Below are positions 5,046 to 64,000 of a stretch of 64,000 nt of DNA, piece after piece. A model generated the notes under the pieces. The model saw nothing but the letters and a program-made list of their open reading frames with translations. It ran no database searches and was not told where the DNA came from. The stretch comes from Bryum argenteum (taxonomy: Eukaryota; Streptophyta; Bryopsida; Bryales; Bryaceae): assembly GCA_037043015.1 (NCBI GenBank), contig CM073321.1:21883001-21947000 (forward strand), given 5' to 3'. Both the position numbers and the translations under genes were made by a program. Every line of letters starts with the position of its first letter. Within the stretch, counting starts at the first letter, position 1.

Positions 5046-5985
5046 AATCGTCGACTCGGCGATACCATCCTAACAGTAACCGTCTCCGAGCTGTAAAGTG
5101 AAGATAGAAACCTAACGAATCGTCGACTCGACGATATCCACAGCAAATGCCTAACAGTGGGTAGTTTTTCTACAACCCTACAAACAAAGGCTATCAAACC
5201 TAACTAATATACTACTTTGAGTTGTCCGTCTACAACATAGAGTCTATCTTGGTAGTCGATAGCCTCATCAATCAAAGTTATCGTCGACCCGACGATATCT
5301 TGATGGTCGACCACATATTTCTAAGATAAAATACTCCCCGACCGTGGATTGAAGGGGTATCGTCAACCCGACGATAACCACCGACGGTACAAGTAATATT
5401 CAACTTAATATATTACCTCGTGGGCAGCTTGGAAGATATCGTCGACTCGACAATAGCATGCCATGGAAGCAATATTTTCAATTTACATTCTTGTATTGGT
5501 TAACATAAATATTATCGTCGACCCGACGATAACATGGCATGGTACTAAACAACATAAGCGTTATCGCTGACACAACAATAACCTGGCATTTAAAGAGGTT
5601 AACATAAGAGGTTATCATAAGAGTTATCGTCGACACGACAATAACCTCGCATACATAAGAGGTTAATGTTAGAGTTTACCATAAGAGTTATCGTCGACAC
5701 AACGATAACTTGACATACATAAGAGGTTAACATAAGAGGTTATGATAAGAATTATTATCGACACCACGATAACCTGGCATACTAAACATTTCAATATGAA
5801 ATGAACCTATTGATAATCATAATAGTTATCGTCGACCCAACGACAACCAAGCAGAAAAATTCGAAGGCTGCACGCCCACCGAGGCGACCTCAGGGTTATC
5901 ATCGACCCAACAACAATCAGGCAAAAAATTCGAAGGCTGCACGCCCCCCAAGGTGACCCTCAGGGTTATCATCGATCCGATGATG
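5046..5985. repeat. Cluster of 13 E1 palindromes upstream of the DUF7869 gene
   Basis: About 13 copies of TATCGTCG-NNN-CGACGATA spaced 30-150 bp, for example 5046-5064, 5118-5136, 5279-5297 and 5967-5985. The spacer is mostly ACC, ACT or ACA, the reverse complement of the GGT/AGT spacers of the right-hand cluster, so the two clusters are mirror images. Seen from the minus-strand gene they lie directly upstream, at a promoter or 5' leader position. Some copies are degenerate in one arm. In other settings such arrays are binding sites for an element-encoded protein; that role here is inference. Confidence 0.9.
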
Positions 5986-6720
5986 GCATAGTTCCCAAGG
6001 CATTTCCGAATTATTTGGCGTAAAGGGCGCTATATACGTTGTCAACAAATGTTTGTAAACAAAGGTTAACACAAATATAACAACAATCAACTCAACCGAA
6101 ATACTACAGAAAAATCGAAGAACAATAAACACAAATAAAGATGACGAACAATAAACAAAAACGAAGGCGATCAGCTCGACAACAAGATACGGATTATACA
6201 TTCTATACAATTGCAAAAGGTGAATAAGTCGTTGAATGTTAGCTAAAATGCGGCGGAAGTTAAGAGCCAACACCGTGAAGTAGCGCCCAAAAATTGATAG
6301 AAAAGAAGAGAAGAAGAGAGGGAGAGAGAAAGCGCGGAAGAGCAGCGCCTCAAGTTGAAGGAAGAGCAGCGCAAGAACTTGACCGGAGTTTACACAACAC
6401 GAAGAGCCTTCAGGAAAAAGAATGTTGAAAGCCAAGGCAGTTCCTCGCGCGAAGAATATGAGCAATCAAAGGATGAATTCCGTGCGTAAGGAAAGAGCGG
6501 GAATAATTTGCCGCCAAAAACAAAATTCAAACCGTCATTGTTCAAACGGATCTTCGTATAAGACATATTTAAGATGAGATCCGGCTAATAAATGAGGATC
6601 CAGAACTTTTGTAACAAATTTAATAACCAACTTCTGTAACGAATATACGTCCCAAATAGCATCCTCCTTGAAATTTTGCTTTGTTGAACAAATACATAAT
6701 TAAAGGCTTACAAAATAAAA
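5986..6720 (-). promoter_or_regulatory. Probable 5' leader of the DUF7869 gene
   Basis: No convincing gene. On the minus strand a pyrimidine-rich stretch (TCTTCTCTTCTTTTC and neighbours, 6290-6330) and GC-rich islands resemble the leader-like segment at 14480-15200 in front of the ParB-like gene. A long open frame at 5917-6465 is hydrophobic low complexity and I do not trust it. Confidence 0.3.
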
Positions 6721-6935
6721 CCTTAGGGTTTAGGGTTTAGGGTTTAGGGTTTAGGGTTCGGGGTTTAAGTTTTAGGGTTTAGGATTTGGGGTTTTGGTTT
6801 TAGGGGTTAGAGTTTAGGGTTTAGAGTTTGGGATTTGGGATTTTGGTTTTAGGGGTTAGAGTTTAGGGTTTAGAATTTTGTGGTTTAGAATTTAGGGTTT
6901 GTGGTCAATGCTTAGGGTTTTAGGGGTTAGTAAAC
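6721..6935 (+). repeat. Interstitial telomeric-type repeat (TTTAGGG)
   Basis: Five near-perfect tandem TTTAGGG units (6723-6758) followed by about 180 bp of degenerate copies, including two copies of a longer unit ending TTTTGGTTTTAGGGGTTAG. TTTAGGG is the telomere repeat of most land plants and many streptophytes. It lies far from any end in this window, so it is an internal tract. Confidence 0.95.
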
Positions 6936-8486
6936 TCAATTTAAGGATTTTTAAAGAAAGGCTATAAGCTTTCCGCTTAAATAGTTGGTAAAGATCTAAA
7001 AGATTATGTTATAGAGGTAATTATAAGTAACTCTTTTTGTTTGGTGTTGACGAATGTAAATTTTTCCAATATTCGTATCACTCATTTTCCATTTTAAATT
7101 TACAATAAATAACATATGAATTTTAAAATTTGGCGGTAGAATAACGTTTGTAAATACTTAAAGTAGCATAATGTAGGTTGAATATCAACCCTAGAATACA
7201 ATATTACAATATGAGTAAAATGTATATTATAAAAAATATTCTAACTTAACATAGGAGACTATATAACCAAACTAAAATGCAATAGTTAGCAACTTTAGAA
7301 GAATGTATATATTCATTAAAGTTACTTAGAGTTTCAAATTACATAACTTTATTTGAATTGTGTTATTGTGCAAAGTGCATATCTATGTAGCTTTATAGTA
7401 CAACCTATTCTAGTTTGGACTAACAAAGTGAGATTATGTATTATTAAAAGCTTTCAAACTCTTCTCTCCTAAATACCTAATAGCTCTACCATGATACAAA
7501 ACTATAAACCTATAAGAAGATGTCCTAAGTTGTTACTTATATTCATGTAGAATTACTTAAGTAACTAAATTGTTTTTTCATAATTCTCTCAACTAATTCT
7601 CTAAAAGTCCTTATAAGACAATTAAATCTGCTCTATTATTTCTATTTTATAATAAATGATAACATAAAATTCAGACTAATAAAAGATAGTTGTTTATGGG
7701 CCCTTTAAAGTTCATAGTATCTTCTCCTTATATAATATCTCTTAGTCTAAACCACATTCTAGTTTCTTAACCTAGTTCTTATCCTTATATATAATAATAA
7801 AAAAATATAACCTTTGACAAATATTGACAAACGTTATATGTATATCATATATATAGTTTTATCCATTTTATGCGTAACTTATAATGTTATTAAGTACCAA
7901 ATTTATTCTTAAATTATTTTGCTTAGTATCTACTAATATTTTATAGTTTTAGGGTGTTAAATTCTTTGTAAAGATATAATCTTGTATGGATGCTTGCTTC
8001 TGATTTCTTTGCTAGCCAATAAATTGTATATTGTTATCTACGCAACAAACTCTTATTGAAATATGGTAATATTTTTAAAATGCCATGTATAATTCATGGC
8101 TATAACGCAATGTGATAATTCAAAAATATTATGAAGATTTGGTACATATGAATAAAACAATATGACGTTAATAATACGACAACCGTAAAATATACTTAAA
8201 TAACATAATTAGACTAGGATACTTGTTGGTGGATGAAAGATTCCATATTTCACTTTCACTTATAAACACTATGTCCTCGTTTTAGCAAGAAAGGACAATT
8301 CAAGAAGTAAAAATATTTTTGGCAATGGGGGTAATCAAACTCTATGCATTTCTAGAAAACAAACTTATTTATAGTTAAAGTAAAGGGCAAGTCTTTAAAG
8401 TATCTCTATTATAAAATTAATTCGGATAGCACAAACAAGTCGACAATGCGTAAGAATATGGATGTTGCGGATTTCTAGCCGTCCGA
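6936..8486. other. AT-rich stretch without a gene
   Basis: Very AT-rich DNA with no long or plausible reading frame on either strand. I see no repeat family here. Confidence 0.6.
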
Positions 8487-8714
8487 CGTGTATTGGCAAG
8501 CGTGTCTCCACTCTTTGCTAAAATGTTTGGTCATGACGTGAAAGAACAGCTTACTTCCATAGTGCAAATCTTTGATATGACCATCGATGCTTTGGAATTG
8601 TTCTTGCTTCTGCACTACATCACCAACGGCCACACCGATGGAGGTATACAGCAGCTAAACGATGCTATCGACAAGAACGTCAAAAAGTTTCGAAAAGCCG
8701 TGATGAAGTGCTAA
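8487..8714 (+). pseudogene. BTB/POZ domain fragment
   Basis: The frame VLASVSPLFAKMFGHDVKE followed by IFDMTIDALELFLLLHYI matches the central part of a BTB/POZ fold (the 'LAARSPVFKAMF' helix and 'DMS.EAFQ.FL.Y.Y' region). BTB proteins usually act as adaptors for cullin-3 ubiquitin ligases. About 75 codons remain; the N-terminal strand of the domain and any MATH or NPH3 partner domain are absent, and a stop lies just upstream. It is probably an exon captured by the element or left by a nested insertion. Confidence 0.6.
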
Positions 8715-8814
8715 GTAGAGAGTAGACTAGAGAATGTTTATTTGTTTGTTTTCTTTGAAATGTGAATCATGACAATAGCTAGGTTTATCACTAAGAATGA
8801 GCACTTTATTCTAG

Positions 8815-9190
8815 TTGAAATATAAGTACCAACAAACATTCAAAAACTAAACGTAAGAAACAAAACTTAGTGCCAAAGCAACTACACTAATTGACCAATG
8901 TAGAATGTAAATATTTATAAACAGTAAAAACTTTTAATATATTTTCATAAATTAGTGTACCTAACACTAATCTACCAATTTAGTTTAGTTTCCTAACACA
9001 TAACAAAACTTAGAATAGAAATATATAAACGCAAAACCATACGCAAAATTTATGTGTTCTATATATAGTTTTGTAAATTTTGTAAATTTATAATTTCTTT
9101 GGTTTTGTAAATTTTCTAAAATTTTAATTTTTTAATTTTATATATTTAGTTTTCTAAATTTTTATTTTATTTTCTGAAATTATAGGATGT
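8815..9190. repeat. Direct repeat, copy 1 (partner at 14208-14460)
   Basis: AT-rich sequence with the landmarks AAACGCAAAACCATA and TCTATATATAG shared in the same order and orientation with 14208-14460. The pair encloses about 5 kb. This could be a segmental duplication or the ends of a nested insertion; I see no clear target duplication. Confidence 0.7.
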
Positions 9191-11165
9191 TCACAATTTT
9201 AATTTTAGATATGACATGCAAATATATGCGACTTGCATATAAATAATTATCACTATTGCAAATTCAAAAGTTTAAAAGCCAATAGAATAATTATTTTGAT
9301 AGGGTGGGCACTCTTGGGCACATTCTCAAATGTACTCAAACCTTGACACTCAAAACCCCTCCAAGGCCGAAAGTTTCTTACTTCTATATGGTTAATGAGT
9401 TTCAAACCTTTCATTTTTGCAACCCCACACTCTGCCATGCATTGTGGTTTTTGCATATGTGGCGGTGGTCTACTTGGGGTGTCAAAAAGGATTGTCCCAT
9501 GAGATGTTTGACCCACCCCATGTCTTTGACCTTCAAGCTTGGAATCTTGAATTGTATTTTAGTGTTGTTAGCTTGAAATTAAATTACATATACACATGTA
9601 GGAAGTGTTGAAATGGATTTGCATAAGTATCTTAAACATTGTGCTTTCCGAATGAGTCCTTTTGCTTCAAGCTCCGGAACTGTCTCAATCAGAGAAATTA
9701 GCAAAAAGGACCCCTACGGACAAGTAACTTTAGTGGGTTTGTTATGAAACTTGGGGTATTGGTTTACAAATGTCTAATGAGCATACTTTTATAAAATAGA
9801 AGTGTGTGATACAAAGAAGGGTGTCAATGGAGATTTGCTTAAGTGTTCATTTGCACGTAATTTCTTACAACCCACAAAAGAGTTAAAATTATGATTTTGA
9901 ATGTTTTTTTAAAGATTCTATGTATGTATCACTATATGTAGGTGCCCATAAACTCAAAATTATCAAAATCATGCTACTTCATAGTGTGTAGTGATAGGTG
10001 TGGACAATCCGGAAAAAGGATTTACACATGATTGAAGGACTTTAGACTTCTACACGTGAGCTTAAAAAGAAAGGAAAGGAAGGGAGAGAGACACATGTCA
10101 ATGGCACATGGAGAGTACATTATGGCGTGTAATCAAGGAGGAGAAGGGTTCTTGGGAGAGTGCTGCCCCATTGGTTGACAAGTACATTAATGATGCATGC
10201 GTAGTGGCCTCATGGGCTGTTCAACTGAGGAATATTCCAACAATACTGTTGGGGGCCCAAAACGGAAGGCAGCACATGTGCTGGATGGGGGCCGAAAATT
10301 AAAGGAGGCACATACTGATTGGATGTAATGTGGCTGCTGCAGCATGGTAACTTCTGTCCTTGATGGTATGTTGATTGTGAGGGGTCCACATAAGAGAGAG
10401 CGCTCAAGGATGGTGTATCATACATCTTATATTTACTGATCTGTATTGAAGTAAACAGTGTAACCAATTTTTATGCATGCCAAAAGTAAATGGATAGACA
10501 GTTCTTGTCGGATCATACTACAGAGATCCTTTTCCCCACAATTTTGCAAATCACATTTCCCAGATTATGAGAAATATGAGAATAGCGTTCAATTTTGGGC
10601 TGATTAGGGGTGTAGGGCTTTTCGGGTGTTGGTTTTAATTTTGGGCTGATTTAGGGGTTTCGGGTTTTTAGAGTTTCCAAGGTTTCTAGGGTTTCGAGGG
10701 TTTTAGAGTGGCTATGCTGTACTGAATTTTTTAGTATTTAGGGTCTAAGGTTGATGACAAATTTTGATGTATTACTTAACCCCTAACCGTCCGTGTGTTT
10801 TTGGGAGCTTGAAAGTAGGAAAGTGCAATTTTTAACCTCTATGCACTCTTGGGGGTATGATCCAATTTCTTTAATTAATTTTAAATTTTCAACCGTAAGA
10901 TCTTGTAGCCAACCCTATTTGAAAGTGCTAATTGAAATTTTAACCGTTGGATCTTATCCATTTGTGAGATTATAGCATTCAAAAGTATATTGCTTGGTGT
11001 CTTTCTATATGTCCTTGTATCCACTTCTATGTACCTATTCTTGCAAATAAAAGAAGGAAAATCAATTTTAAAAAATCAAACTAGGCTTATGAATCTATAT
11101 ACATGAGCCGTGAAAATTATTTTTACTTTTTATTGACCAATCAAAATTTTACATGTATATGATAT
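9191..11165. other. Unassigned region
   Basis: No recognisable gene. Short open frames at 9253-9611 and 10108-10467 overlap on both strands and have no family features. The stretch 10590-10700 is rich in GGGTTT-like words, but it is not a clean telomeric array. Confidence 0.5.
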
Positions 11166-12790
11166 TACAAGCCGTCAAAATTTACATATACATAATATTA
11201 CTTGTTGCTTTAAAGTACATGCATCTCCTGACTTACTATCTTTCCACGCCATTTTTTCCCCTATTTTGAATTGATTTATGGTTCTTGTATGTAATTGTTT
11301 TTTGTTCACCATAGCAATACCAATTTTGATAACTTGGTCATCCAGTGTTTCTTCTTGGAACTTCATTGTTCCATGTACATACTTTTTACTATGAATAAAT
11401 ATAGCAGCTCCCTTGTTTGTATTGAACTTGAGACATGATTGAAATACACTAAAATATTCTCCTTTTGGATCTCCTCTTGTAAATCATGATATTAGTGATG
11501 CTCCCATATCCTCTTTGACAAGGTGAGCTTTGATATATGTGTTTTTACTTAGGTGCATTTGATGTACTTTTGTAGGACACTCTTCAACACCTATATATAC
11601 AGAATTAACAGGTGCATGTTGAACTTCAAAAAAGTTTTCTACCTCTTTACCAAATTTTGGTAGATGTTGCCAAATAGAAGAGCCAAGAGCAATACCAAGA
11701 TCTCTAAAACTTTCTTGAACAACGTTTGATACCTATTTTCTATTGTACTTTACTACATCACCTTCTGAACCTCCATGTGCTAAAAATCCATGACTAGTGA
11801 ATCTACATCTGCCTCTTTGTGCACTATCATCAGTTTTTTTCCCTCCATATAGAGATGTCTCAAAATAGGTGTTAGCAGTAGCCAAGGTATGTCGATAACT
11901 TAAACTATTATCCCATATATTTTGAAAATATACTAGCATTACATGATTGAATTTTATGTTTCGAATATTTGTAACTTTTGTTTTTACAATATTATAGCCG
12001 TTTAATACCAACACATTTTTCTTTTGAATAGGGAATATATTTTCATCCTCATAATTCTCCTCTCAATTGACTTCAAATTGTGGATCTATCCAATATGGTA
12101 GTGGAGAATTCTTCTTTATCATTTTTTATGCTGGGATGTTTGAATATGAAATCATAACTTCCATCTTCTTTTGGATACCAAACTTTTGTAAAATCTGTTA
12201 TTCCTGAATGGAATATTTTTCAAACTTACAATTTAGAATTGTAAACGGAGATTCATCCTTTGATGAATTAGAATTTGATTTATCTTTCAAAAAAACGAGA
12301 AGTTTATCATATACATTGTGAAATTTTTCTAAGCTTTCAATTATTATGCCTTGTGTTAAACTGAAATTAAAAATCCACTTTGTATTTTTTTCATTTTGTG
12401 TATCTTTGTCGGCGTCGCATATAGGACAAATTGGAGGATCATCAAGACATTCTTCACATAATTTGTGACACAAATGTACATAGTATTGTTGCTTTTGCAA
12501 AATCTTCAAATTGGTATTTTTGATTTTTTTTATCGAAAACCGTCTTGAAATAAGGGTTTTCCAACGTCTTGATACATGGTACTATAAATAGTTTTGAGAA
12601 CTTTTTTCTTCCATGTTTAGGAGTTTTACATCTTTGTGCATTGTCATTATCATAAAGCAATTCTATTACATTTCTCTTTTTTGGGAACTTCGCTTTAATC
12701 ACTTGTTGGATTGGTTTCTTTGACTCTTTAGGTGTTAGAGCACGTGATAAATATTGCAAGCCTACTCTCCAGAAAGGCAACTATATACTA
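11166..12790 (-). pseudogene. Unrecognised gene with half a RING-like motif and a possible 2OG-Fe(II) dioxygenase-like region
   Basis: The minus strand holds a series of open pieces. One at 12198-12509 has CHKLCEECLDDPPICPIC, which looks like the second half of a RING finger. Further on (11733-11250) the frame reads DPKGEYFSVFQSCLKF, then GAAIFIHSKKYVHGT, preceded by YIKAHLVKEDMGAS. A G..F........G...F......HG pattern with an upstream histidine is what the double-stranded beta-helix of TET/JBP-like dioxygenases shows, but the match is weak and the usual HxD is not clear (H-L-V here). Several stops and frame changes make it a pseudogene or a many-exon gene. It is far more AT-rich than the ParB-like gene, so it may be a separate insertion. 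Confidence 0.3.
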
Positions 12791-13005
12791 TCTTCCAAAA
12801 TCAAAACATTATAATCTATAATTATAACAACTTACATTTATATACAAACACCTTTCTTGAAGGTTCTTTAGAAATAAAATTATAACTATAAATACAAAGT
12901 AAAAGTGTACTAAAAATATGAAAAACTATTAAAACTAAATAAAAATATGTAACTTTTTTAAAAAATATCTTAATAAAAAAATTCAAATTAAAAGTATAGG
13001 AATCC

Positions 13006-13110
13006 CGGACGCACCACTCGGGTGCCCCAGACGCACTGCATGGGGGCCCTAGTCGTACTGCTCGGAGGCCCTAGTTGCACTGCTCGTGGGCCCTAGACGC
13101 ACCGCTCAAC
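13006..13110. repeat. GC-rich minisatellite, about five 22-bp units
   Basis: Tandem units of the form GACGCACTGCNNGGGGCCCTAG, slightly diverged, in the middle of AT-rich DNA. No coding potential seen. Confidence 0.8.
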
Positions 13111-14207
13111 TAATTTAGACCCTTAGGTACATAATAGCTTCTTCTTGCAATAGTATTATGTTTTGACTACATTTGGGATGCACTCTAGGAATTAATTGGA
13201 TGTATATAAAGAATGAGATGTGCCAAATGTGAACCTTACATCAACCTTTTGGCAATTTTTAGTCATTATAAACTTTTGCCGACTCGAATAAACATCCAAA
13301 AGTTGGTTTATGTTTTTTAGTTCCTTTTTCAAATTTTAACAATTTAATGGCATAAATAGGATAAATTTCTTTTAAAGCTAATGGTTTAAATCTTTACAAC
13401 AAGGATTTAGAGTCATTTTATGCCAAAGGCTTCGAGGATTTACAAGTCTTTTTTATTCTTGGATTACGCACTATTGAACCTCCCAAGTTATTTTGAAAAC
13501 ATATTTATTTTCCAAAATTTTACAAAACTAAAGAATTTAGAGTCAAGACGGACTCTCTGTTCTTATTTATTCCAAATTCAATGTTGTTTTTAACCTTGCT
13601 TCATTTTTCAATTTACTTAAGGCTATATTTCTTGATTTGGATAGTTATTCTCATTTTTAGCCGACATACATGTATTGGCTTGTTGTCGCCTTTTCCTGCA
13701 AAAAATTAGGTGCCGCCCTTTGCCTCTAACTCATGTGTGTCTTTTGGTGATAACTAGTCAAACTTTCTCTCTCGTAAGTTGCACAACTTAGTATCGGTCG
13801 TCTCAACAGTAGGACATGCTAAAAGGCATATAAGAGGGTATAAAAAGCTGCAGAGCTCATAGTATTTTTGTTTGCAGAGACCCTTTATGTAGTATAATGA
13901 TGTTAAGGATGCATTGTAAGTAGGGCAATCACAAAATTTTGCTTTTCAGAGAGTTGTGGCTTCTTTGTATTTTTGTGTTCACTCACTTGATTGCGCATCT
14001 TGAGTTCTTGCGGGGCATTACCAAAACCAACTCAAGTTTTGAGCTCTTCTACAGTGCTTAGAACCTCCACGTAAGTATCAAAACTTACTAGCTTGACATG
14101 TCAACCTCACATGACAAATTTAACTCTGTAATAAGGTTTTTGTAGTCATTTTTTTATCACCCTCTTTCCATGTTCATGGATGTTCTTGAAAGATTCTTAA
14201 GTAGCAA
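13111..14207. other. AT-rich stretch without a gene
   Basis: No plausible reading frame or repeat family recognised. Confidence 0.5.
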
Positions 14208-14460
14208 CAAACATTCAACAACACAAACATAAAAAACTAAACTTAGTGTTGAAGCAATTAGTTTTCTAACACGTAACAAAATTTAGAATGAAAATAAATA
14301 AACGCAAAACCATAAGCATAATTTTGTAATCTATATATAGATTTGTAAATGTTGTAAATTTTTAATTTGTTTGGTATTCAAAATTTTCTAAAATTCCAAT
14401 TTTTTAATTTTATATATTGTGTTTTTTTAATTTTAATTTTAATTTTTGATATTATCATGT
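14208..14460. repeat. Direct repeat, copy 2 (partner at 8815-9190)
   Basis: Same order of motifs as copy 1, with about 80% identity by eye. Confidence 0.7.
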
Positions 14461-14479
14461 GCATGGTGGCCATCATGGG

Positions 14480-15670
14480 GGGCATGATGACCCCCCCTGC
14501 GCCGCCTTTCATCTTCATTCCTCTTTGTTGTCAGCTCTGTTCGTTGTCGACGCTTCCGCCAGCGAGCTTCCGCAAAACGCCGTTTTTCTCTGCGCCGCCT
14601 TTCTCCCGTTCTTCCTGCGCAGCTCGAGCCGTCTCTCTCGCTTCTGCATTTGCTCTGCTCGCTCGCTTGTGCAATCGCTCATTGCTCAGAACACTTCGGT
14701 TGAAGCATTAGGGTTTGCAGCGTTGCAAATAAGTTTCTCGCGGAGCTTCTTGGCACCGGAGCTTTTGAGAGTGCGTTCTAGTAATTGAAACAATAGAACT
14801 CCTCCAGCGCCGAACTCGTGCAACGCCAAACTGGTTGCAGGCAGGTTCTCGTGCGCCAAACCTCTCCTGTGCGTTGTTTGTGACGCTTAGGATTAGGTTG
14901 CACATTAGTTTCTCGCCTCCTGCACGACGCAGGTTAGGTTCACGCTCGTTTCGATTAGTTTCTTGCCTCCTGCGCGACGCAGGTTAGGTTCACGTTGTGT
15001 GTCGATTGATTTTTTGAATTGCCTAGCTTTACGGCTCTATGACTTGAACGTGTTGATCAGGAACTTCTTGTAGATGCTCATGAACTTCGCCGCGAAGGCT
15101 GTGTACGTGCACCATACAACAGTCGATCAGAAGCCTTGAAGTCTGATGTTTTTCTGTTTGATTTGCAGCACTTCGGCCATTGCTGACGGCCGTTGAAGCA
15201 TTTAGGGCTTAGGATTCACAGGAGGTACGCTTGAAGCATATGTCAGTATTTTTTACTGCATATTCTCAGTTATTTTGTATTCCAGGTTTCAGATTCTTGT
15301 ACAGATTCTACACATTCAGTTTCTTCTCTTCCCCCACCGTTCTTTTATGGTTTTTTCTCATTGTTAATTCAACTTCCTTATGATCTTGAATATCTATGGC
15401 TTCTGCTCAGAATGTGTTTGATTTTGCAAGTACAGGCTTTAGTCTAATAGAATTCATGCAATTCCTACGACCTTGTTGTTCACAGGAAGCTCTAACACTG
15501 TAGTCTTGTACGGATAGATCCAAAATCGTATGATCTCTCAAGATCATCAAGACGAAGGCAAAGTCTACCGACAAGGTGACTACTCTTTAGTCAGATTAGG
15601 GTTTCTAAATATATGAGACTACCTTTCTATAGTTTTGGTGAGATTCCGTCAATATATTATCTCATGATAG
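14480..15670 (+). promoter_or_regulatory. Probable promoter/5' leader of the ParB/methyltransferase-like gene
   Basis: An abrupt switch from AT-rich to CG-containing, pyrimidine-rich DNA begins near 14480. It includes two direct 40-bp copies at about 14905-14944 and 14956-14995 (core CGACGCAGGTTAGGTTCACG, one unit every 51 bp). Possible introns could lie here, but no clear coding exon is visible before 16565. The palindrome cluster follows at once. Confidence 0.35.
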
Positions 15671-16481
15671 TATCGTCGGGCCGACGATACAGCAATAAGT
15701 TGTAGTACTAAGAAGATTTTAAATGAATTTAAGAGGCCACCAACTTTTAATATAGTTCAGAGAGCAATTGCCTTATCGTCGAGTCGACGATACGAGGCTT
15801 CGAATGGCCTTATCGTCGGGTCGACGATAGAAGCCTTCAAATGGCCTCATTGTCGGGTCGACAATATATGGCTTTCAATTGCCTTATCATCGAGTCGAAG
15901 ATACAAGGCTTCAAATGGCCTTATCGTTGGGTCGACAATACAAGGCTTCAAATAACCTTATCGTCCGGTCGACAATACAAGGCAAAATTAGGCCTTAGAG
16001 GTAGTAAGATAAAAAAAATAAAACATTCTAGAGGATAGTTAGAAAGTTATCGTCGAGCCGTCGATAATATGATCGAAAAAGAAACATGTAAATCTAGAAA
16101 GAAACATGTAAATCTAGAAAAAAAAGGATATCCAGAAAAAAAGAAGGATATCGTCGGCACGACGATAACCTTCAGTATTGTGAAATTGTACATTCTAGAG
16201 AAGAGAAGTTAGCCATTGATATAATATATTGCAACAGACGAAGTGTAGACAGGACGTCTGTATCGTCCGTCCGACGATAGCTATGTTCGAGGTAAATAGC
16301 TTAGACACTAGAGGAAAGATATAAGTGAGATCCATCACTATTTAGCTCTCAGCAAATGCATGAGAGCTTATTGTCGGTTCGACGATGAGCTCTTAAGATT
16401 ATTCAAAAAGAGTTTTGTGAAACGCTCATACGTCTCCCTTTCCGGGAGATATCGGAAGACTGCATCGTTGGGTTGATGATA
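15671..16481. repeat. Cluster of 12 E1 palindromes upstream of the ParB/methyltransferase-like gene
   Basis: About 12 copies of TATCGTCG-NNN-CGACGATA, for example 15671-15689 (spacer GGC) and 16463-16481 (degenerate, spacer GGT). Between 15770 and 15980 they recur every ~37 bp within a longer unit (AAGGCTTCAAATGGCCTTATC). The last copy ends 83 bp before the ATG at 16565. Orientation is mirrored relative to 5046-5985. Confidence 0.9.
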
Positions 16482-17995
16482 GGTACCTTATAATCAACAC
16501 ATAACTAATTGCATAGCAATGAAATGTCTAATGCAAATCAGTGACGCTGATGTAGAAAGTTAAAATGGCGGAAGTCGAAGCATACGACTACCAAGTCTCC
16601 CTGCATGACCTTGAGCCGTTCGTGAATCCCTTGGGAGACGAGCCATTTTTCGAAGAAATGGCCGAGACATATGGAGATCTCTGGCAGTTCAAGCCACACG
16701 TTCAGACATGGAACTTTGGAGTCAACAAATTCAAGAATTTTGTGTTCATTCGATACAAGGCGAACGAATCATCTACATATCTACGGTGGAATCACAACGA
16801 GAAAGTGACCATCATCGAGTGCCACGGAGTCATTTACATCGTCATCGTGTTCCGTGCAGTGGACGAGAATGGATTTGAGCAAGATCATTGTTACTCTATT
16901 GTTATCGATACAACAAAGGAGCATGGAATTTTCGACATTTAGGACCTCATGACGTACTTTGAGGGTTCCAAAATGGCCTCCCTGAATAGCGAGTTCATCA
17001 ACTTGGGATATGTGAGCGGACCATGTGGCTCTGCAAAGTCCATGGCAAATCGACTTAGGAGGATCTTCCAAACACTCGATCGATACGCCTTGGCTAACGT
17101 CTGCTTGGAACCCGCTCCACGACGAATACCAGTGCAGCCGAATCGAGGTGCGTCAAATCCACGCCTGAACTTGGCGTCCACCCCTTCCGAATCTGCAAGC
17201 AAAGGAGTAACGCTGAGTCAGCCTCGATCAGAGGGTAAGAAGAGAGCACCACCTTCTACAGATGGAGCTGGGTCGAGCCGCAAGCGTAAGAAACCCGCCT
17301 CAGCCGCACCAAGTACTGCAATAGTACCGACTCAAATTACGGAGAGTTCAAGGTCAGTCCTAACAAACGTTACCGCTAGAGCCGGTACTTCTGATGAAAA
17401 GCTGGAGGAGTTTGAGAAAACCACGAACTTACAAAAAGAATTCTGGGATAATCACAAGGATTGCTTCTTAATGAATATGAACCCGATGGAGGTAGATATC
17501 GATCAGTGCATACTGGCGAAAAATCAGTATGTTATCCAAACGCTGCAGTAGGACATGGTTGAAAGAGTTGCCAGAGAACTTGTCCAGATGATCGATGTCA
17601 AGCAGAGACAAGAAATCTGCCTAACTAAAGAGAAGCTGCTAAAGAACAAGCCCGAAGATTGGGATGAGATCAAGGAGGGGAAGTTCATGATCATCAACGG
17701 GCAGCATAGCGTTTGTGCATCAAAACAGCTTCACAAAGAAGGATGTGGAGAAGTTTGGCGCAACGAGCTCCGCAAATGGAACGCCTACATCATCTGGACC
17801 TTGGACGCCACTAAACTTCGAGGAATCTCAAAGTTGTACAACATCACGAACCACCTGGATCATGCGCAACCGTCATGGGGAAACCAGGTAGTGGCGTGTA
17901 GAAATATTTGGATAGCCCTGAAGCGCCCAACTGATGAATTCTCCGAAGCGGTCACGAGGGGTAACAAGGCGGTGCACAACGTCATTAAGTTCAAG

Positions 17996-18098
17996 GTAAC
18001 AATCTGATCTCAAGTGGCTATCGTCGCATCGACGATACCTCTGATGCTGATGTTCATCTTGCTTCACAATGCTAACCTTAACTGATTTACGTACGCAG
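17996..18098 (+). other. Intron 1 of the E1 ParB/methyltransferase-like gene, with a palindrome
   Basis: Donor AAG|GTAAC and acceptor TACGCAG|AG, phase 0. A perfect palindrome (spacer CAT) lies at 18019-18037. The position and phase match intron 1 of E2 (63016-63243): both fall just before the SFTDAL / EFEEAV segment. Confidence 0.8.
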
Positions 18099-19057
18099 AG
18101 CTTCACGGATGCTCTGACGGAGAGATACCAGCACATCAATCCAACATCGGATGGGGCACGCATAAAGTCCGCAACCAATTTGAAGAATGAGATTCAAATC
18201 ATCACCCTACCGGACCACAAGTTCGGCTATTGGGAAAGGTTTCTTCAGAAGCATGCTCACGGCAAACTAATCGACCCCGTCTCGAAATTGCTTTTCAACA
18301 AGACGAAGACCTACAAGTCCCAGAGTAACAAGCTGAAACGGGAGTTCTTCAGGCGATGCGGATGGTTCACCGTCACGGACTTCACCATCATGCCAAGGCA
18401 TCTACTTGGGGAAACTCCAGGACGGACCGCACCATATCTGGAAGTCACTGTTGGGAGACCTCTGGTGCTTGTGGCGGACAATCTTGCGTGCGTCGACTGG
18501 GTAGAGAGAAGGAAGCGCAAGAAAGTTGTGCTTGAGGATATCATTTGAATCAAGCCCTCCCTCAAGCTTATCGACGGCAGCGGCGACACCATTGACGCCA
18601 CATGGAAGGCGTGGAAGATCACGCACCGTTTCACATCGGCGAGCTGGGATTTTCTCTTGACATATCCAAGCGCGGAGTACTACAGGAAGCGCCTCCGCAA
18701 CGAGGCAAAGACAAAAAATGCGGTCGAGTTGGAGCAGCAACATCCCAAGGTGGTGCACATATACAGGAGGTTTATGACACCGAAGTACCGTCCGAAAGAG
18801 CCTCTTAAGAGTGTGCAGATCAGAGGGCTAGACTTCAAATTGAAGGCTTTAGTCACATGCAGCCATTACATCTACACTTCACGTGAGGTGAATTTGGCAC
18901 TTCTCGACTTGCGCAATGTCCCACGCTCGCAAGTGACCGAGACGAGCGGAGCCGTCGACCCATTCGTGGACTTTCTTTGGCATCATCTAGAACCCAAGAT
19001 CTCGGAGCCAAACGTCTGGCTGATGGTGTTGTCTGAAAATGAATAGTTCTTAAATTT

Positions 19058-19076
19058 TATTTTCGGATCGACGATT
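19058..19076. repeat. Degenerate E1 palindrome in intron 2
   Basis: TATTTTCG-GAT-CGACGATT. It lies between the stop at 19044 and the acceptor ACGCCAG|ATG at 19109. The same intron in E2 also holds a palindrome (61566-61584). Confidence 0.65.
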
Positions 19077-19682
19077 ATGTAATCTAACAGAGTGACATGT
19101 ATACGCCAGATGTTCGGAGCTCACCACTACGGATTCGTAGATAAAGAGGACGTGAAGAGCAAAATAAAAATCTCCGCTCTTGCAGAACGGCTTGACATGA
19201 ACGATTTCATGCACTCAAACTTGCCGTATTCGATAGATTACGTTCGTCCGGTCACACGGGGTCCTGTAATAGTGCACTCCGACTCTCCTCCGTCGACACC
19301 AATGAATCTAAACTCTCCTGTCGAAGGTGGGTTCGGAGTAATGCGCCAACCTGAAGAAGTAGGAGCGCATGTTTCCAATATTCCGGCCATCCAAAGCATC
19401 GATCAATTCCGGACGAACACGTTTCGAGTCTGCTCGAAGATGTATTTCGAGCAAGCTTTCCCCCTCGCACCAATAGATGACCAGGGGGCCGGTTCATTTC
19501 AGGTGCATATTGTGCATTTGTAGGACAACCCCTTGGAAGGCCAAGAGGCGCCCTGATAGGATTAAGGCGAGCATGATTTCTATCATGACGATGCCATCCA
19601 AGATGATGTCGTCATCAATTTGGCTGCGATAGAGGTGGGACAGCATGGTGTGGTCGTCCAAGGCGGTTCTCAGAATGTCGAG

Positions 19683-22410: not shown

Positions 22411-22527
22411 TTGATGTCGAACTCGAGAAAGTTGACTACGAGTTGGGAGCTGACAACCTGGAGGTTGGGAGCTCGGATCTTCAATCGGCTCCTGAAGTTC
22501 CTTCTCAGGATCCGGGTCTAGACAAAC
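22331..22527 (+). pseudogene. Acidic continuation of the E1 protein
   Basis: The frame VELEKVDYELGADNLEVGSS continues the acidic tail and ends at a donor-like site, AAACAG|GTACAG, at 22527. It carries one coding palindrome (22392-22410). The downstream acceptor at 23065 leads into the FCP1-like domain, so the two could be exons of one gene. Confidence 0.5.
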
Positions 22528-46220: not shown

Positions 46221-46257
46221 CAGGCAGTCAGATCGACCACCGACCGATCCGACGGCC

Positions 46258-49725: not shown

Positions 49726-51768
49726 TCAGAACCTCATCGTGGGATTAGTCGTAGGTACTGAGTCAGGTTCGTCGTTGGCAGAGTCAAGTGAGATTGGGAC
49801 ACCATGAACCGCTCTCTCTGCATCTTCTTGCAACTCCTGAACACCCTCAGAAGCCTCATGCGCAGACGCCACACCAATCGAGACGGGGGTCACCAAGAGC
49901 GAGGATGCGCCGTTACGAACATCTTCATCCGCTGGCCCGTAGTCGCTGGCTTTGTAGTCCACATTGTCGTTTCGGTGGTCTGGCACCTCGAGCTGATGAA
50001 CGCCATCGTTTTCTCTTGGATTGGCGTTATCAGCTTTCGAAGGAGATGCGTCAACAATAATCTCCTCAATAACAACGTCCGGTAGTGAGGTAGACGGAGC
50101 AGGAAGAATGCACGCAGGAACTGAAGGAATCGGAAGTGTTGTGCGCTCGAGTGGAGTTTGAGTGGTGGAAGTCAAAGGCCCACAGATAGCTAAAGTAGGT
50201 TGATTGACGAGGTTGTAGGAGGCAAGGGGAAGAGCCACCTTTGCTACATGGGTCATCAAACTCCTCAAATCGCTCAAATCGCCCAAAACTCTGGAATTTG
50301 AGCTCTCCAAACTCGAGAACTTGGATTCGATTTTGAGTTGATCTAATCGCCATTGCTCCTCTAACCTAGCATGATCTGCCCGCCGTTGCTCCTCCGACTT
50401 AGAAAGATCTGCAAACCTTTGCGCCTCACGTCTTGCATTTAGAGCTTCCTCTTCAGCTCTTTTGGCAGACCTTCTCTCCTCCTTTCCCTTCTCACGCTGT
50501 GCTCGCTTGGCATCCTTTGAGAGTGGAAGGGCAATGTTCGTCTCAATTTTTACTCGAGGTTGTGAAGGTTCCCCTTCCTCTTGCGGACCTAGACCCAGAC
50601 TTATGAGGGGATCAGCAGCACCGTCCGCAGGCGTGGGAGAATCCGGCTCACCCGAAAAATTAAAAAATGTAGTCTCCACCTTCTCGTCGGGGTCGTCCGC
50701 GTGAGTATTCCAAACACCCTTCTTCAACAAAGGAAGGTTCCGTGCACGTAAAGGATGCACCACAGGCGGTGGAGGCGGTGATGACACCATTGCAACTGGC
50801 AGAGGCGGCGATGACTCCCTTGTAACTGCCGGAGGCAACGATGATACCCTTGCTAGTGCTGCTGCCGGCGATGGGGCCAACATGTGAGCGGGAGAGGAGA
50901 CGACATCATCACCCAAATTCATGGGCGAGGGATCAATAGTGTCATCCTCGTAAAAACCTTTACAACCATCATCGGCGTTCTCCTCGTCAGAACTATCCAA
51001 GGTAGCCGCATCCCCGGGCATCCTCTCTTGTCCGAGAACAACCTCCTCATCCGACTGAGACCCAAAAACATCATTTACCGCCTTCGTGCGGGTCTCTTGA
51101 CGATGGTCTGAATTATCATCTTCAATATCATCGTCTTCGCTAAGAGCATCAGGGAGGCCGATGGAAGCGAGTGTTTCCTCAAGCAGCATAGGGGGATTTA
51201 GCTCGACTCGAGCTAAATCAACACCGCGAGTCAGAGATCGTCTTCGGTCACTAGAAGTTCCCCTGGATAGTCAAGGACGAGCATGCCCACCACGACCACG
51301 ACCACCGGATGAAGGAGCGCCTCCACGACTGGGAACAGCGATTGAAGGAGCGCCTCCACTACCACCAAACGATGGATGATTACCACGAGCACGACCACCC
51401 GACGATGGATGACCACCACGAGCACGACCACCACGAGCACCACAACCACGGGCACCACCACCAGACGATAGATCGCCACCACCAGCAGATGATGATTCGC
51501 CACCACGAGCCACATCAGCAGACGATGTCTCACCACGACGAGCACGACTACCAGACGACGATGCCTCACCACGCCCACGCCCAGCAGAACAGGTAAACCC
51601 AGTCTCAGGCGAAGACCCAGGCTTCGGACCATGAACCCAAGCTGGATTCACATAGGCGTCCTCACAAAAGTCGTTGGGATCGAGATTAAAACTATCTGCC
51701 TGGACGGCTATATATTTCTCCAACTAATCTTCGTCTTTGTAGACAATATGAGTCTGAAGATTAAGCAT
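49726..51768 (-). pseudogene. E2 protein, third exon: methyltransferase end, Gly/Arg-rich and coiled-coil parts
   Basis: One minus-strand frame of 681 codons runs from an acceptor (GTGAG|ATG at 51768) to 49726, with two in-frame stops. It starts MLNLQTHIVYKDED, which aligns with MFGAHHYGFVDKEDV at the same exon start in E1, the strand after motif I of a methyltransferase. Next come a Gly/Arg/Ser-rich stretch (51300-51600), an acidic part (SEDDDIEDDNSD), Pro-rich SSPPPPPVV, and a strong coiled coil (KDAKRAQREKGKEERRSAKR and onwards, ~50530-50280). A palindrome at 51198-51216 is in the coding frame and encodes LARVEL. The order of parts matches E1. Confidence 0.6.
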
Positions 51769-60703: not shown

Positions 60704-60710
<7 letters not shown>

Positions 60711-60743: not shown

Positions 60744-60746
<3 letters not shown>

Positions 60747-60778
60747 TCAGCATTCCATCCCCAGCATGGTCGCCAAAA

Positions 60779-61542: not shown

Positions 61543-61680
61543 ACGTATAGTGAAGCTATGGTAATTTAGGTCTAGCCGAGCTAAATTGACAAGTAAACAA
61601 AAAAAGCAGATGGGTAAGCGACAAAAAAACAGGCATTCAGGTGGGATCGAGCTAAACGCCTAGGTGAATGTAGAACTTAC
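61543..61680 (-). other. Intron 2 of the E2 gene, upstream part, with palindrome
   Basis: Donor ATA|GTAAGT at 61680. A one-arm-degenerate palindrome, TTAGGTCT-AGC-CGAGCTAA, lies at 61566-61584 and a half-site (ATCGAGCTAAA) near 61647. The intron would be about 180 bp without the Gypsy element. Confidence 0.7.
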
Positions 61681-64000
61681 TATTCCTGGAAGCATGGGCT
61701 TTGTGCCTGCCATAATCGACAGAAATCTGTTGCCTGGAACGGTAAACATTCGCAATATACGAATGTAGAATTCCAAACGCAACTCGTTCTCGTTGATGCT
61801 GAAATCAAACTCCCTCTACGCTCCTGATCTTTGGTAAAGGGGAATTTTTGGGGCATAGAACGTCTCCGGAATGGATTCGATGAGATCGGCTACCTGGTGG
61901 GTTCTCTTCACGAGAAACGAGAGTGGAATGAGGTGTTTGTCCACGACCTTTCCCTCCAAGATACTGTTGAAACGCTCATTGTTCGCAGGAGCGTAGTGGA
62001 CAGTCTTCGACTTGTACAAATCTTTGAACACGTTGAAATATACGACGGCCTGGCAATGCCGATCGGTTGTCTCCGTAATAAATAGCAAGACGTCAGGATT
62101 CTTTATAGAGGGGTCAAACACAGAATCCTTCCAAGCATTCAGGAAGTCATTGAAGTAGACATTCGAAGTGTCGTCCACTCTACTACTATGGCCCGGGACG
62201 CATCTGAGGTCGATAATACCCAATGCGCACCTTCCATCGTCCCAAGTATATCCATTATCCCAGCCATCGAATTGAAAGGTCTCAGCATCAAACATTCGTG
62301 TGCGAAGTTCCGGAGTTGGCAGCGAAAAATCCCCTTTCACTTCCAAAAATTTCTTGAAGAACTCCGCAGCGTACTCGGAGATCTGTTCGGAACTCTTGTT
62401 CTTCGTCATCTTCTGGCAGTAGTCGGTAAAGAAGCTGTCTCCGGGAACGGAAAGGAGCATCAACATAGTCTGCCGGTTGACGTTGTAATCGCACTTAAAC
62501 TCATTCCTCTTGTCAACAACAAAGTTGTCAGTACTGTCAAATAACCCGAGAGCAGGCTTGATGTAGTGGAACTCTTTGGCAACACATTTTTTCCTCTTGC
62601 GCTTCTCCATCCACATCTTTATGGCAACGCACTCCCAGTAGTTGACCTTTGACTTCTTGAACAACACCTTCGGATAGGGTAGATCCCGATTGGGAGTCTT
62701 ATTCAGAAGATGTTGCGTAAGAGTCTTTAAGTCGTGCTCCTCCAATCCTGACATGCACTTGAAGGTATTGCGGGTCAAGACAGTATCCTTGGATTTTGAG
62801 GCCCAATCTTGCGCTCGGTTGAAAGGCTCGCAAGTGTCGGGGTCAATCAATTCTCCTAGCCCGTTTGCAATGGTAACATTGGACCACAGTTGGTATACTT
62901 CCTCGAATGTAGTGATAAGTTCCAATTCGTCGAGGAGGTCCGATGGCTTTAACAGCTTGTCGAGTGATTTGGTGTTGATGCTCATGAAGCGTTTCACCAC
63001 AGCCTCCTCAAACTCCTGAAGAGGAGAGCAACTTCATTAAAAAACATGAAGTGATGATAGTAATCGTTTAAATCTACGCGAATTTAGCTCGATTCGAGCT
63101 AAACGCCCTGAATTTAGCTCGGATCGAGCTAAATTCGCGTAGATTCAAACGTACGAATGGTTCAGAATGAGTCGAGTTGAAAGGTGCACTATTACTAAGA
63201 TAACTTTGTTGCAGATAGAGAAAAACTGTGTTGCAAGACGTACCTCATACTTCCGCCGGGCGATAGTTTGTTCGACAGTTGCACGAACGGACTTGGGCTT
63301 CGGACCACACTTCGCGGGCGACCCGTATTCCAACCAAACACTCCTCGCGCCCAAGATATTTGTGCCCCAACAAGGTGTGAACGTTCCGGTGTTGTTGGTC
63401 TTTTTAGCCATGATGGACACGTCCATGATCATTTTCGCGTCAGAATGCCAAACAATTTGTGCCCGCCAAGTCTTCAAGGCAGTAATCTTATCAGCTGCAA
63501 TTCTAGCCTCCATGATCAGCTCCTTTGCTGCTTGAACATGATGTTGCCCATTGATGACACGGAAATTGCACTTTGAGGCGAGTAGTTCATCCCAGTCCCA
63601 TGTCTCAGGGGCCTTATCCATCACCAGCATAATGATGATGGTCTGCCTCAAGTTCAAATCGATTGCGTTTGTCAATATGTTTTTGTAATGCACAACTCCA
63701 GCGGTCTCCAGCTTCCGGACGATATACCGCGCATCACCATTCACAAGGAGATCGATAGACACGTTGACTGGAGGAGAGTCCTTCCCAAAAACGTAACAAG
63801 GCCCAAACTTCTCCCAGAAATCCTTCAAGGTCTTACTTGCTGCTTCGTAATCGATATCCTCCTCGGTTGAGGCGTGCTTCATAATAGGATTCAAGTAAGT
63901 GAGAGTACTGCCCCCCAAATTACTCTTGGATCTCTTCCCCTTCTTAACTGGGGATGGGTTTGAGTTGCGACGTTTCTTTGAGGCCGAAGGAGTTGCCTCA
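61681..64000 (-). pseudogene. E2 ParB-like / amino-methyltransferase-like protein, exons 1-2 (runs off the window)
   Basis: Exon 1 (from beyond 64000 to 63244) has a basic stretch (KKRRNSNPSPVKKGKR, nuclear signal-like), an acidic-hydrophobic region, and the ParB/DGQHR-like core NFRVINGQHHVQAAKEL near 63550. Intron 1 (63016-63243, phase 0) follows RRKYE. Exon 2 (63015-61681) reads EFEEAVVKRFMS, then ALGIIDLRCVPGHS and PDVLLFITETTD, like motif IV and the next strand of beta-class amino-methyltransferases, then FYIRILRMFTVPGNRFLSIMAG, like the 'L...LI..F..PGD.VLDPFAGSG' motif X-I region. The usual catalytic DPPY is not present (IDLR) and motif I is degenerate, so the domain is probably inactive or diverged. 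One stop lies at 61816. The pair with E1 is clear throughout. Confidence 0.62.
63016..63243 (-). other. Intron 1 of the E2 gene, with two palindromes in a long hairpin
   Basis: Donor GAG|GTACGT and acceptor TCTTCAG|GAG. Two perfect palindromes, TTAGCTCG-ATT-CGAGCTAA (63084-63102) and TTAGCTCG-GAT-CGAGCTAA (63114-63132). Around them, 63071-63091 and 63125-63145 are perfect 21-base inverted arms. Confidence 0.85.

What the first reader, a model, noticed from the sequence alone, without database searches (positions are those of the whole stretch)
5046..63145. Two related elements, each with its own 19-bp palindrome of identical 8-3-8 design
E1 carries TATCGTCG-NNN-CGACGATA and E2 carries TTAGCTCG-NNN-CGAGCTAA. 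Both have 8-base arms ending in CG, a free 3-base centre, and are linked to homologous ParB/methyltransferase-like genes. I saw no copy of one motif in the other element. This looks like co-divergence of a protein and its recognition site. ParB proteins bind palindromic parS sites, and plant VANDAL elements co-evolve short motifs with the VANC protein, but I know of no description of this combination.
Basis: partly seen in the sequence, partly recalled or inferred. Interest (0 to 1): 0.93.

Follow-up and report, generated by a model that had tools for sequence, protein, structure and literature searches.

The report
Transposons with their own docking palindromes
Large DNA transposons in this eukaryotic genome carry a 19-letter palindrome beside and inside their own genes, and the branches of a transposon protein family that were examined have their own versions of it, as expected if a protein of the element and the DNA site it binds change together.

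Summary
Exact 8-3-8 palindromes in the 258.8 Mb genome: TATCGTCG 324, TTAGCTCG 6744; reversed controls 0, a scrambled arm 0. They sit upstream of two divergent genes of large transposons (a DUF7869 gene, putative transposase, and a ParB/methyltransferase-like gene) and in an intron of the latter. E1 is 23.8 kb with 26-bp inverted repeats. Two further arm types here track protein clades: TTAGGTCG (107 copies, graded C-to-G change along the protein tree) and TATCCCCG (1032, found in the same intron of an unexamined clade). Metagenome relatives read into the next intron fit the design in 13 of 46 tails (shuffled mean 0.71); one arm so predicted (TCAGCTCG) was confirmed in another organism's DNA (6 exact sites). 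Of 250 listed sites, 120 lie within 5 kb of a listed gene of the matching clade, none near a listed gene of another. Most likely an element-encoded protein binds these sites to keep its element expressed (VANC-like anti-silencing); binding and function are inferred. ParB/methyltransferase homology is sub-threshold, and linkage does not separate this protein from DUF7869.

The parts
1580..25365 (.). Element E1 (23.8 kb DNA transposon)
   Evidence: Ends defined by 26-bp inverted repeats, 25 of 26 identical; homology to a related copy stops at the left end
1580..1605 (+). Left terminal inverted repeat of E1, begins AAGGCC
25340..25365 (-). Right terminal inverted repeat of E1
2072..4920 (-). DUF7869 gene, putative transposase, in exons
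   Evidence: PF25273 E 1.4e-23 (2926-3258) and 6.9e-6 (3299-3658); collinear copies in other elements
5046..5845 (.). Array of 9 TATCGTCG-type palindromes (at most 2 mismatches) upstream of the DUF7869 gene
   Evidence: nearest site 126 bp from the gene's approximate 5' end
6723..6900 (+). Degenerate TTTAGGG (plant-telomere-like) array inside E1, also in other E1-type elements
15671..16387 (.). Array of 10 TATCGTCG-type palindromes (at most 2 mismatches) upstream of the ParB/MT-like gene, partly a 37-bp tandem repeat
16556..19523 (+). E1 ParB/methyltransferase-like gene, several exons, degraded (in-frame stops)
   Evidence: GQH..A motif aligned with relatives
18019..18037 (.). Exact TATCGTCG palindrome in the intron between the ParB-like and MT-like exons
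19890..19908 (.). TATCGTCG palindrome, 1 mismatch, downstream of the MT-like exons
23172..23450 (+). NIF/FCP1-like phosphatase gene piece inside E1
   Evidence: PF03031 E 3.8e-4, 20.6 bits, just under the 21.8 cut-off
47791..47809 (.). E2 hybrid palindrome, left half TTAGGTCG, 2 mismatches to the TTAGCTCG type
48348..49010 (-). NIF/FCP1-like phosphatase gene piece of E2
   Evidence: PF03031 E 4e-5
49686..49704 (.). Exact TTAGCTCG palindrome between two E2 open frames
51198..51216 (.). Exact TTAGCTCG palindrome just upstream of the first ATG of the 49726-51189 frame
61566..61584 (.). E2 hybrid palindrome, left half TTAGGTCT, right half TTAGCTCG
61819..63033 (-). E2 MT-like exon (405 aa)
63084..63132 (.). 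Two exact TTAGCTCG palindromes in the intron before the MT-like exon
63249..64000 (-). E2 ParB-like exon, continuing past the window into L005; the boundary is read by eye from the splice-like GT

Best explanation
E1 and E2 belong to one superfamily of large DNA transposons. Besides a putative transposase (DUF7869), these elements encode a ParB/methyltransferase-like accessory protein that binds, probably as a dimer, the element's own 8-3-8 palindromes. The sites are amplified as arrays upstream of both genes and also lie in introns. The outer arm bases and the protein co-diverge, while the inner CG-NNN-CG and the first T stay fixed, so each lineage recognises its own kin. The likely purpose is sequence-specific protection of the element's own promoters from host silencing, or activation of them, as VANC does for VANDAL elements. 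Shown here: the sites, their placement, their conservation, the clade-specific arms, and the same layout in another organism. Inferred: that the ParB/MT-like protein is the binder, dimeric binding, loss of methyl-transfer activity (no DPPY-type motif; a D-L/F/V-R motif at the aligned place), and the anti-silencing role.
For: Arms 93% versus spacers 60% identical within arrays, arms higher in 9 of 9 arrays. Sites avoid coding DNA: 4 of 241 overlap coding matches (37.8 of 184 kb), and by my reading those 4 are edge or intron read-through cases. Sites within 2 kb upstream of 5 of 5 DUF7869 genes examined (nearest 51-190 bp) and of 10 of 10 ParB/MT genes examined (nearest 30-444 bp; 5' ends approximate). 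Intron before the MT exon: 17 of 17 stretches fetched by gene and not by motif hold an 8-3-8 palindrome with at most one mismatch (13 TTAGCTCG, and 63/65; 2 TATCCCCG, 88/89; 2 TATCGTCG, 90/91). Cross-table: 120 of 250 listed sites within 5 kb of a same-clade listed gene, 0 near another clade. Graded C-to-G arm change along the tree. Metagenome tails 13 of 46 against shuffled mean 0.71, maximum 3 of 200 shuffles. L066 from another organism: 6 exact TCAGCTCG sites in the same layout. Decayed TATCGTCG half-sites are mostly CpG transitions (49 of 77 mismatches), as expected if the host methylates silenced copies.
Against: No binding data. All genes of an element are co-inherited, so the clade-arm match would arise for any element-encoded binder, including DUF7869. 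ParB and methyltransferase assignments fail statistical thresholds: no Pfam or NCBIfam match above cut-off; PHROG ParB-like E 0.26; PRMT7 E 0.52; no PDB match for the ParB part at E up to 10. Of the listed sites, 8 of 50 TATCGTCG, 35 of 100 TTAGCTCG, 14 of 50 TTAGGTCG and 16 of 50 TATCCCCG have no same-clade listed gene within 20 kb (gene lists are capped, and 30 of the 35 TTAGCTCG sites lie in stretches where a gene was found by direct comparison, L015 and L016). TTAGCTCG decay is less CpG-biased (21 of 61 mismatches). Site changes within the E2 family are not independent events, because copies share descent. No methylation or expression data.
Confidence: 0.66

Rival explanations
1. The palindromes are binding sites of the DUF7869 transposase, used in transposition like subterminal repeats; the ParB/MT-like gene is a passenger.
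For: The DUF7869 gene is in the same elements and has sites upstream; it also diverges between E1-type and E2-type elements (33-34% identity over the first matched exon of L013 and L016). The clade-arm match cannot separate linked genes.
Against: Arrays in E1 begin about 3.5 kb inside the left end, at promoters and in an intron, not next to the inverted repeats. The palindrome is present in the intron of the ParB/MT-like gene in 17 of 17 stretches fetched by gene, and the L066 contig shows it around that gene.
Confidence: 0.14
2. The sites are enhancers or operators for a host transcription factor that the transposons exploit.
For: Position upstream of both genes and in introns.
Against: At least four arm types coexist in one genome and follow transposon clades; a host factor would favour one site. 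Arms decoded in other organisms are rare here (TCAGCTCG 1, TATCCTCG 9).
Confidence: 0.07
3. The palindromes act as RNA or cruciform hairpins (splicing, small-RNA or silencing triggers) and not as protein sites.
For: Palindromes lie in introns and in flanks that may be transcribed; spacers in 7 of 9 arrays are also self-complementary beyond shuffles.
Against: A hairpin needs pairing, not one arm sequence; here the sites of a lineage share the same arm across arrays, and the CG-NNN-CG core recurs in deeply diverged clades. Spacer self-complementarity was not seen in the two TATCGTCG arrays tested.
Confidence: 0.07
4. No function: the motif is a by-product of tandem amplification and hitch-hiking in transposons.
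For: Many sites are in tandem arrays with lineage-specific periods, and copies share descent.
Against: Arms are more conserved than spacers in 9 of 9 arrays; arrays of different period and spacer share the same 19-mer; single intron sites persist in 51-67% identical copies; a palindrome of the expected design was found in a clade not examined before.
Confidence: 0.03
5. The protein is an active N4C/N6A DNA methyltransferase that marks its own palindromes, as proposed for related algal proteins.
For: Authors of PMC12477816 (section 5, read) propose this for the Ectocarpus Sola1-1 protein and cite green and red algal cases. A faint match of the last part of the MT-like profile to PRMT7 (E 0.52).
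Against: No [DNS]PP[YFW]-type catalytic motif seen in the aligned MT-like exons; the aligned place reads D-L/F/V-R-x-x-P or similar.
Confidence: 0.08

Closest known systems
VANDAL transposons and VANC anti-silencing proteins (Arabidopsis; PMC5735166 passages and PMC10398659 abstract seen)
   Same: Accessory protein and short non-coding motif in the same element; motifs in introns and upstream of element genes, amplified as tandem repeats; related families have different motifs; proposed co-evolution.
   Different: VANC21 motif is 9 bases (YAGTATTAY), arrayed in the same orientation; here a 19-bp palindrome. No VANC or VANDAL sequence was compared here. Binding and demethylation are demonstrated there, not here.
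ParB-like plus DNA-methyltransferase accessory proteins of algal transposons (Sola1-1_Ec32 of Ectocarpus, PMC12477816 section 5 read; Iyer 2011 and Petroll 2025, cited there, not read)
   Same: [quoted passage not shown] proposed self-binding.
   Different: The text read there names no recognition site, palindrome or co-divergence; that protein is predicted to be an active methyltransferase; the MT-like part here lacks the catalytic motif.
Bacterial ParB-parS (recalled, no call)
   Same: ParB-like GQH..A stretch; palindromic DNA sites in clusters.
   Different: No partner ATPase noticed, no significant family match; canonical parS is recalled as a 16-bp palindrome without a free centre.
En/Spm-type transposases and subterminal repeats (recalled)
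   Same: Repeated short motifs bound by an element protein.
   Different: Sites here are promoter-proximal and intronic, not subterminal in E1.

Membership tests
VANDAL/VANC | Motif arrays in introns and upstream regions of element genes | tested here: met
VANDAL/VANC | Related proteins with different motifs in different families | tested here: met
VANDAL/VANC | VANC protein homology and Mutator-type element | tested here: inconclusive
   Pfam gives DUF7869 and NIF for the element genes and nothing else above cut-off; no direct comparison with a VANC or MULE sequence was made. It is not filed as a VANDAL.
VANDAL/VANC | Protein binds the motif and removes silencing marks | not testable with these tools
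   needs EMSA/ChIP and methylome
ParB family | Significant ParB-domain match | tested here: not met
   no Pfam or NCBIfam match; PHROG 1033 ParB-like E 0.26 over P0012 293-361; no PDB match
ParB family | Conserved G-x-H-x-x-x-A box | tested here: met
   columns G344 Q345 H346 A350 invariant in 14 sequences; equating it with the ParB box is recalled
N4/N6 DNA methyltransferases | Catalytic [DNS]PP[YFW] motif | tested here: not met
   aligned place reads DLR/DFR/DVR..P or similar in the sequences that cover it; placing it there is by eye
N4/N6 DNA methyltransferases | SAM-binding motif I / methyltransferase fold | tested here: inconclusive
   PRMT7 E 0.52 over profile positions 404-445; structure prediction switched off
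DNA transposon | Terminal inverted repeats with a gene set in between, many copies | tested here: met
   E1: 26-bp TIR, 25 of 26 identical; 103, 124, 90 and 93 scored matches for four protein queries
DNA transposon | Target-site duplication | tested here: inconclusive
   flanks of E1 read; no clear duplication in this old copy
Sola1 superfamily | Sola1 transposase | not tested
   only the layout resembles Sola1-1_Ec32; no Sola sequence was compared

The most novel reading that the evidence does not exclude
A previously undescribed, ParB-derived class of transposon self-recognition system: one family of accessory proteins has changed DNA specificity several times (TATCGTCG, TATCCCCG, TTAGCTCG, TTAGGTCG in this genome; TCAGCTCG in DNA of another organism; TATCCTCG and TTAACTCG decoded from protein frames) while keeping a CG-NNN-CG core. 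It evolved independently of VANC toward the same anti-silencing strategy, and one lineage here is caught in mid-switch (C to G at arm position 5), so the stepwise change of protein and site can be replayed.
Probability: 0.5. Interest if true: 0.92.

Novelty: new variant of a known kind. Interest (0 to 1): 0.8.

Why it matters
Transposon-borne ParB/methyltransferase proteins have been noted in algae, and the text I read names no DNA target for them. This gives a concrete 19-bp candidate target, a natural panel of four paired protein-site variants in one genome, and a lineage with intermediate sites. It makes two open questions directly testable: what these accessory proteins do, and how a protein and many scattered sites change specificity together. 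It would also be a second, apparently unrelated case of the VANC strategy, suggesting that sequence-specific self-protection is a recurring solution for large transposons.

Tried and rejected
Structure prediction: switched off, so folds could not be compared. PDB sequence searches: nothing for the first MT-like profile at E up to 1; at E up to 10, three weak matches for the wider profile (the best, E 0.011, to KLLA0C11825p over the first 76 positions, I could not interpret) and none for the ParB-like profile. Pfam, PHROG and NCBIfam on the ParB/MT-like parts: no significant match. Rfam: no match in the window. E2 ends: not found by searching for the E1 terminal repeat or by comparing E2-type copies. 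Target-site duplication of E1: not clear. Specificity residues: 37 N-part and 34 MT-part columns differ between the C-type and G-type copies, too many to single any out. Viral contigs: P0002 gave no relative; six and one contigs with a single site of the two patterns, about what chance gives in so large a collection (own estimate), not pursued. Papers: one hit on ParB-MT in transposons (passages in 31 and 41, section 5 in 35 and 37); searches for the 19-mers, for DUF7869 and for related phrases listed no description of the palindromes that I recognised. That they are not in print rests on these open-licence searches only.

A DUF7869 genome search did not complete, so DUF7869-motif linkage rests on the fetched loci only.

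Caveats on counts: the second table counted a site under two arms and used a hand-set 5' end for L010; one search repeats it for 10 genes without either fault. 5' ends are extrapolated from matches or taken as open-frame starts. In one search the clade lists are capped, seven C1 places in the E2 list come and their clade is not certain, and the 'M4' gene list is one search matches on C1 under 36% identity that are absent; sites are the first ones the tool prints, all on C1. Trees: one search used 40 own copies and 9 metagenome proteins (49 rows); one search used 14 of those 40 copies and 29 metagenome proteins of 400 aa or more (quick method). In one search, of 92 MT-type proteins 46 had a usable tail, and the template demanded T at the start and CG at the end of the arm, so these two features are not independent findings there; P0020 also gave one probable chance fit (TCACCGCG). 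Of the 12 stretches L007-L018, L009, L013 and L018 continue neighbours. L062 and L063 are near-identical copies.
Full report
WHAT WAS CHECKED. The window lies at C1:21883001-21947000 of an unnamed 258.8 Mb eukaryotic genome in 25 contigs. Exact genome-wide counts are 324 for TATCGTCG-NNN-CGACGATA and 6744 for TTAGCTCG-NNN-CGAGCTAA. The reversed patterns give 0 each, and one scrambled arm of the same design gives 0.

ANATOMY. E1 spans 1580-25365 between 26-bp inverted repeats. Inside are a minus-strand gene with DUF7869, a plus-strand ParB/methyltransferase-like gene (16556-19523), and an NIF-phosphatase-like piece (20.6 bits, just under the curated cut-off of 21.8). The two main genes are divergent and about 11.6 kb apart. 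Arrays of the palindrome lie just upstream of each, and one exact copy lies in the intron between the ParB-like and MT-like exons (18019). E2 has a ParB/MT-like gene that runs off the window at 64000 and an NIF-like piece; no DUF7869 match was found for it in the window or in the next 10 kb. Two exact TTAGCTCG sites lie in its corresponding intron (63084, 63114). Twelve 10-kb stretches fetched because they held sites or continued such a stretch (L007-L018) all contain one or both genes, and none mixes TATCGTCG with TTAGCTCG sites at up to 2 mismatches. In one region (C1:205-236 kb) an element of each type lies side by side: TTAGCTCG sites end at 217679 and TATCGTCG sites begin at 226471. All 5 DUF7869 genes examined have sites within 2 kb upstream, nearest 51-190 bp, and so do all 10 ParB/MT genes examined, nearest 30-444 bp; the 5' ends are approximate. 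Of 241 sites in these stretches and the window, 4 overlap coding matches; by my reading all four are where the query frame runs into an intron or upstream of a start codon.

SELECTION ON THE MOTIF. In 9 of 9 arrays the arms are more alike (mean 93%) than the spacers (mean 60%). Periods differ between arrays (33, 35, 37, 38, 46, about 53, 64 and others) while the 19-mer stays. Decay of TATCGTCG half-sites is dominated by CpG transitions (49 of 77 mismatches); TTAGCTCG shows 21 of 61. This fits host cytosine methylation of silenced copies, which is inferred.

CO-DIVERGENCE WITHIN ONE LINEAGE. Among E2 and the 29 copies listed as most like it (L019-L048), a subclade carries TTAGGTCG arms instead, a type with 107 exact genomic copies and reversed control 0. 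On the MT-exon tree of 49 rows the arm changes step by step. At position 5, the outside copies L049 and L012 have C only; L022 and L023 nearly only C; E2, L020, L021 and L033 mostly C with hybrids; L024, L025 and L043 are mixed; and the 21 others are mostly G. The change hits both halves of sites at several places in the element, although the copies share descent, so sites are not independent events.

TESTS IN COPIES NOT CHOSEN BY MOTIF. The intron before the MT exon was fetched from further copies found by protein only. In 13 of 13 copies 51-67% identical to E2 there is a TTAGCTCG-type palindrome, 10 perfect and 3 with one mismatch. In 2 of 2 E1-clade copies at 53-56% identity there is a TATCGTCG-type one with one mismatch. 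In 2 of 2 (near-identical) copies of a clade only 31% identical to the E1-clade query there is a perfect palindrome with new arms, TATCCCCG, which proved to have 1032 exact copies genome-wide, control 0. Some of these surround genes of that clade (C1:962960, C1:3827373).

CROSS-TABLE. For the listed sites of four arm types (TATCGTCG 50, TTAGCTCG 100, TTAGGTCG 50, TATCCCCG 50; the first places the tool prints, all on C1), 25, 51, 33 and 11 lie within 5 kb of a listed gene of the matching clade, and 0 lie within 5 kb of a listed gene of another clade. TTAGCTCG and TTAGGTCG share the E2 family, so they count as one group there. At 20 kb, other-clade neighbours appear at about chance level, with TATCGTCG near the L014 clade somewhat above (8, with 4.1 expected). 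Against: 8, 35, 14 and 16 of the listed sites have no same-clade listed gene within 20 kb. Gene lists are capped at 90-124 scored matches; 30 of the 35 TTAGCTCG sites are in stretches where direct comparison did find an element gene (L015, L016).

OTHER ORGANISMS. A profile search found 85 related proteins, most of them metagenomic. Open frames that run past the MT exon read into the next intron; 13 of 46 usable tails can encode a perfect 8-3-8 palindrome with arms that begin with T and end with CG (demanded by the scan), against a mean of 0.71 and a maximum of 3 in 200 shuffles. The decoded arms agree with the tree (quick method, SH-aLRT only): TTAGCTCG in P0002, P0003, P0004 and P0006; TATCGTCG in P0020, P0028 and P0034 (P0034, and one of two sites of P0020, also allow TATCTTCG); TATCCTCG in P0031 and P0032; TATCCCCG in P0048; TTAACTCG in P0029; TCAGCTCG in P0040 and P0049 (P0006 and P0049 are not in that tree). 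For P0040 the DNA could be fetched (L066, a 6.2 kb contig filed under a cyanobacterial MAG): six exact TCAGCTCG palindromes, upstream of the first frame, after each of the two exons and downstream. That arm occurs once in the window's genome, and TATCCTCG nine times, not assigned to a clade.

WHAT THE PROTEIN IS. The N-terminal part has an invariant GQH...A box and a later invariant N and P, which I recognise as ParB-like from memory; the only database support is PHROG 1033, ParB-like, E 0.26. The C-terminal part ends in a stretch that aligns with PRMT7 at E 0.52, in what I take for its SAM-binding region, and shows D-L/F/V-R where, by eye, a DNA methyltransferase would have its catalytic DPPY-type motif. 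I therefore treat it as ParB-like and MT-like by resemblance, probably without methyl-transfer activity (inference).

MECHANISM. The simplest reading is that the element-encoded protein binds its own sites at promoters and introns. Palindromy suggests a dimer. Lineage-specific arms confine the effect to kin. The layout resembles VANDAL elements (motifs in introns of the accessory gene and upstream of another gene, tandem growth, family-specific motifs; PMC5735166, passages seen), so anti-silencing is my leading function. The main weakness is linkage: any protein of the element would show the same clade-arm match. Position argues against a transposition site (internal, promoter-proximal, intronic), but only binding data can decide.

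NOVELTY. ParB plus methyltransferase accessory proteins in algal transposons are in print (PMC12477816, section 5 read, which cites Iyer 2011 and Petroll 2025, not read). No paper in the open library holds the 19-mers searched for, and I recognised no description of such palindromes in the listings. I rate it a new variant of a known kind.

Noticed in passing
window 6723-6900; L010 1489-1676; genome C1:227331-227551; C1 about 2130470-2130650: A degenerate TTTAGGG telomere-like array sits inside four E1-type elements, between the DUF7869 upstream array and the ParB/MT gene.
   Followed up: partly
L012 5051-5850, L013 4289-4622, arrays in L014, L015, L016: Spacers between TTAGCTCG palindromes are themselves self-complementary (7 of 9 arrays beyond shuffles), often ended ATG..CAT or ACT..AGT; not seen in the two TATCGTCG arrays.
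   Followed up: partly
contig C1 (44.1 Mb): Copies are concentrated on C1: 52 listed E1-clade gene places there against two elsewhere (capped list), though C1 is about 17% of the assembly; possibly a sex or otherwise low-recombination chromosome.
   Followed up: no
window 23172-23450, 48348-49010; L015 8516-9322; L018 3129-3935: An NIF/FCP1-like phosphatase gene recurs in E1, E2 and L015, with a look-alike frame in L018 (not searched), on the ParB/MT strand downstream of it; a third accessory gene.
   Followed up: partly
L027 1041, 1180, 1319 and similar places in L026-L048: Within the TTAGGTCG subclade a further asymmetric half-site, TTAGGTGG, recurs (at 139-bp spacing in L027), perhaps another step of site change.
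   Followed up: no
window 39875-46332: Nested inverted repeats of 48-682 bp at 75-100% complementarity, a large foldback structure between E1 and E2.
   Followed up: no
window 25874-29957, 33919-34383, 52349-60874: Retroelement frames (recognised by eye, Copia- and Gypsy-like) and a DUF4218 piece (PF13960 E 4e-28) between and inside the elements.
   Followed up: no
L066 (CADCWO010000269.1): A contig filed under an uncultured Synechococcales MAG carries a split gene of this eukaryotic element kind, so it looks like a eukaryotic contaminant in the bin.
   Followed up: partly
genome C1:36003727: A single TATCCTCG palindrome lies about 400 bp beyond the MT-like match C1:36002310-36003311, near the place of its intron; perhaps another arm-clade pair.
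   Followed up: no
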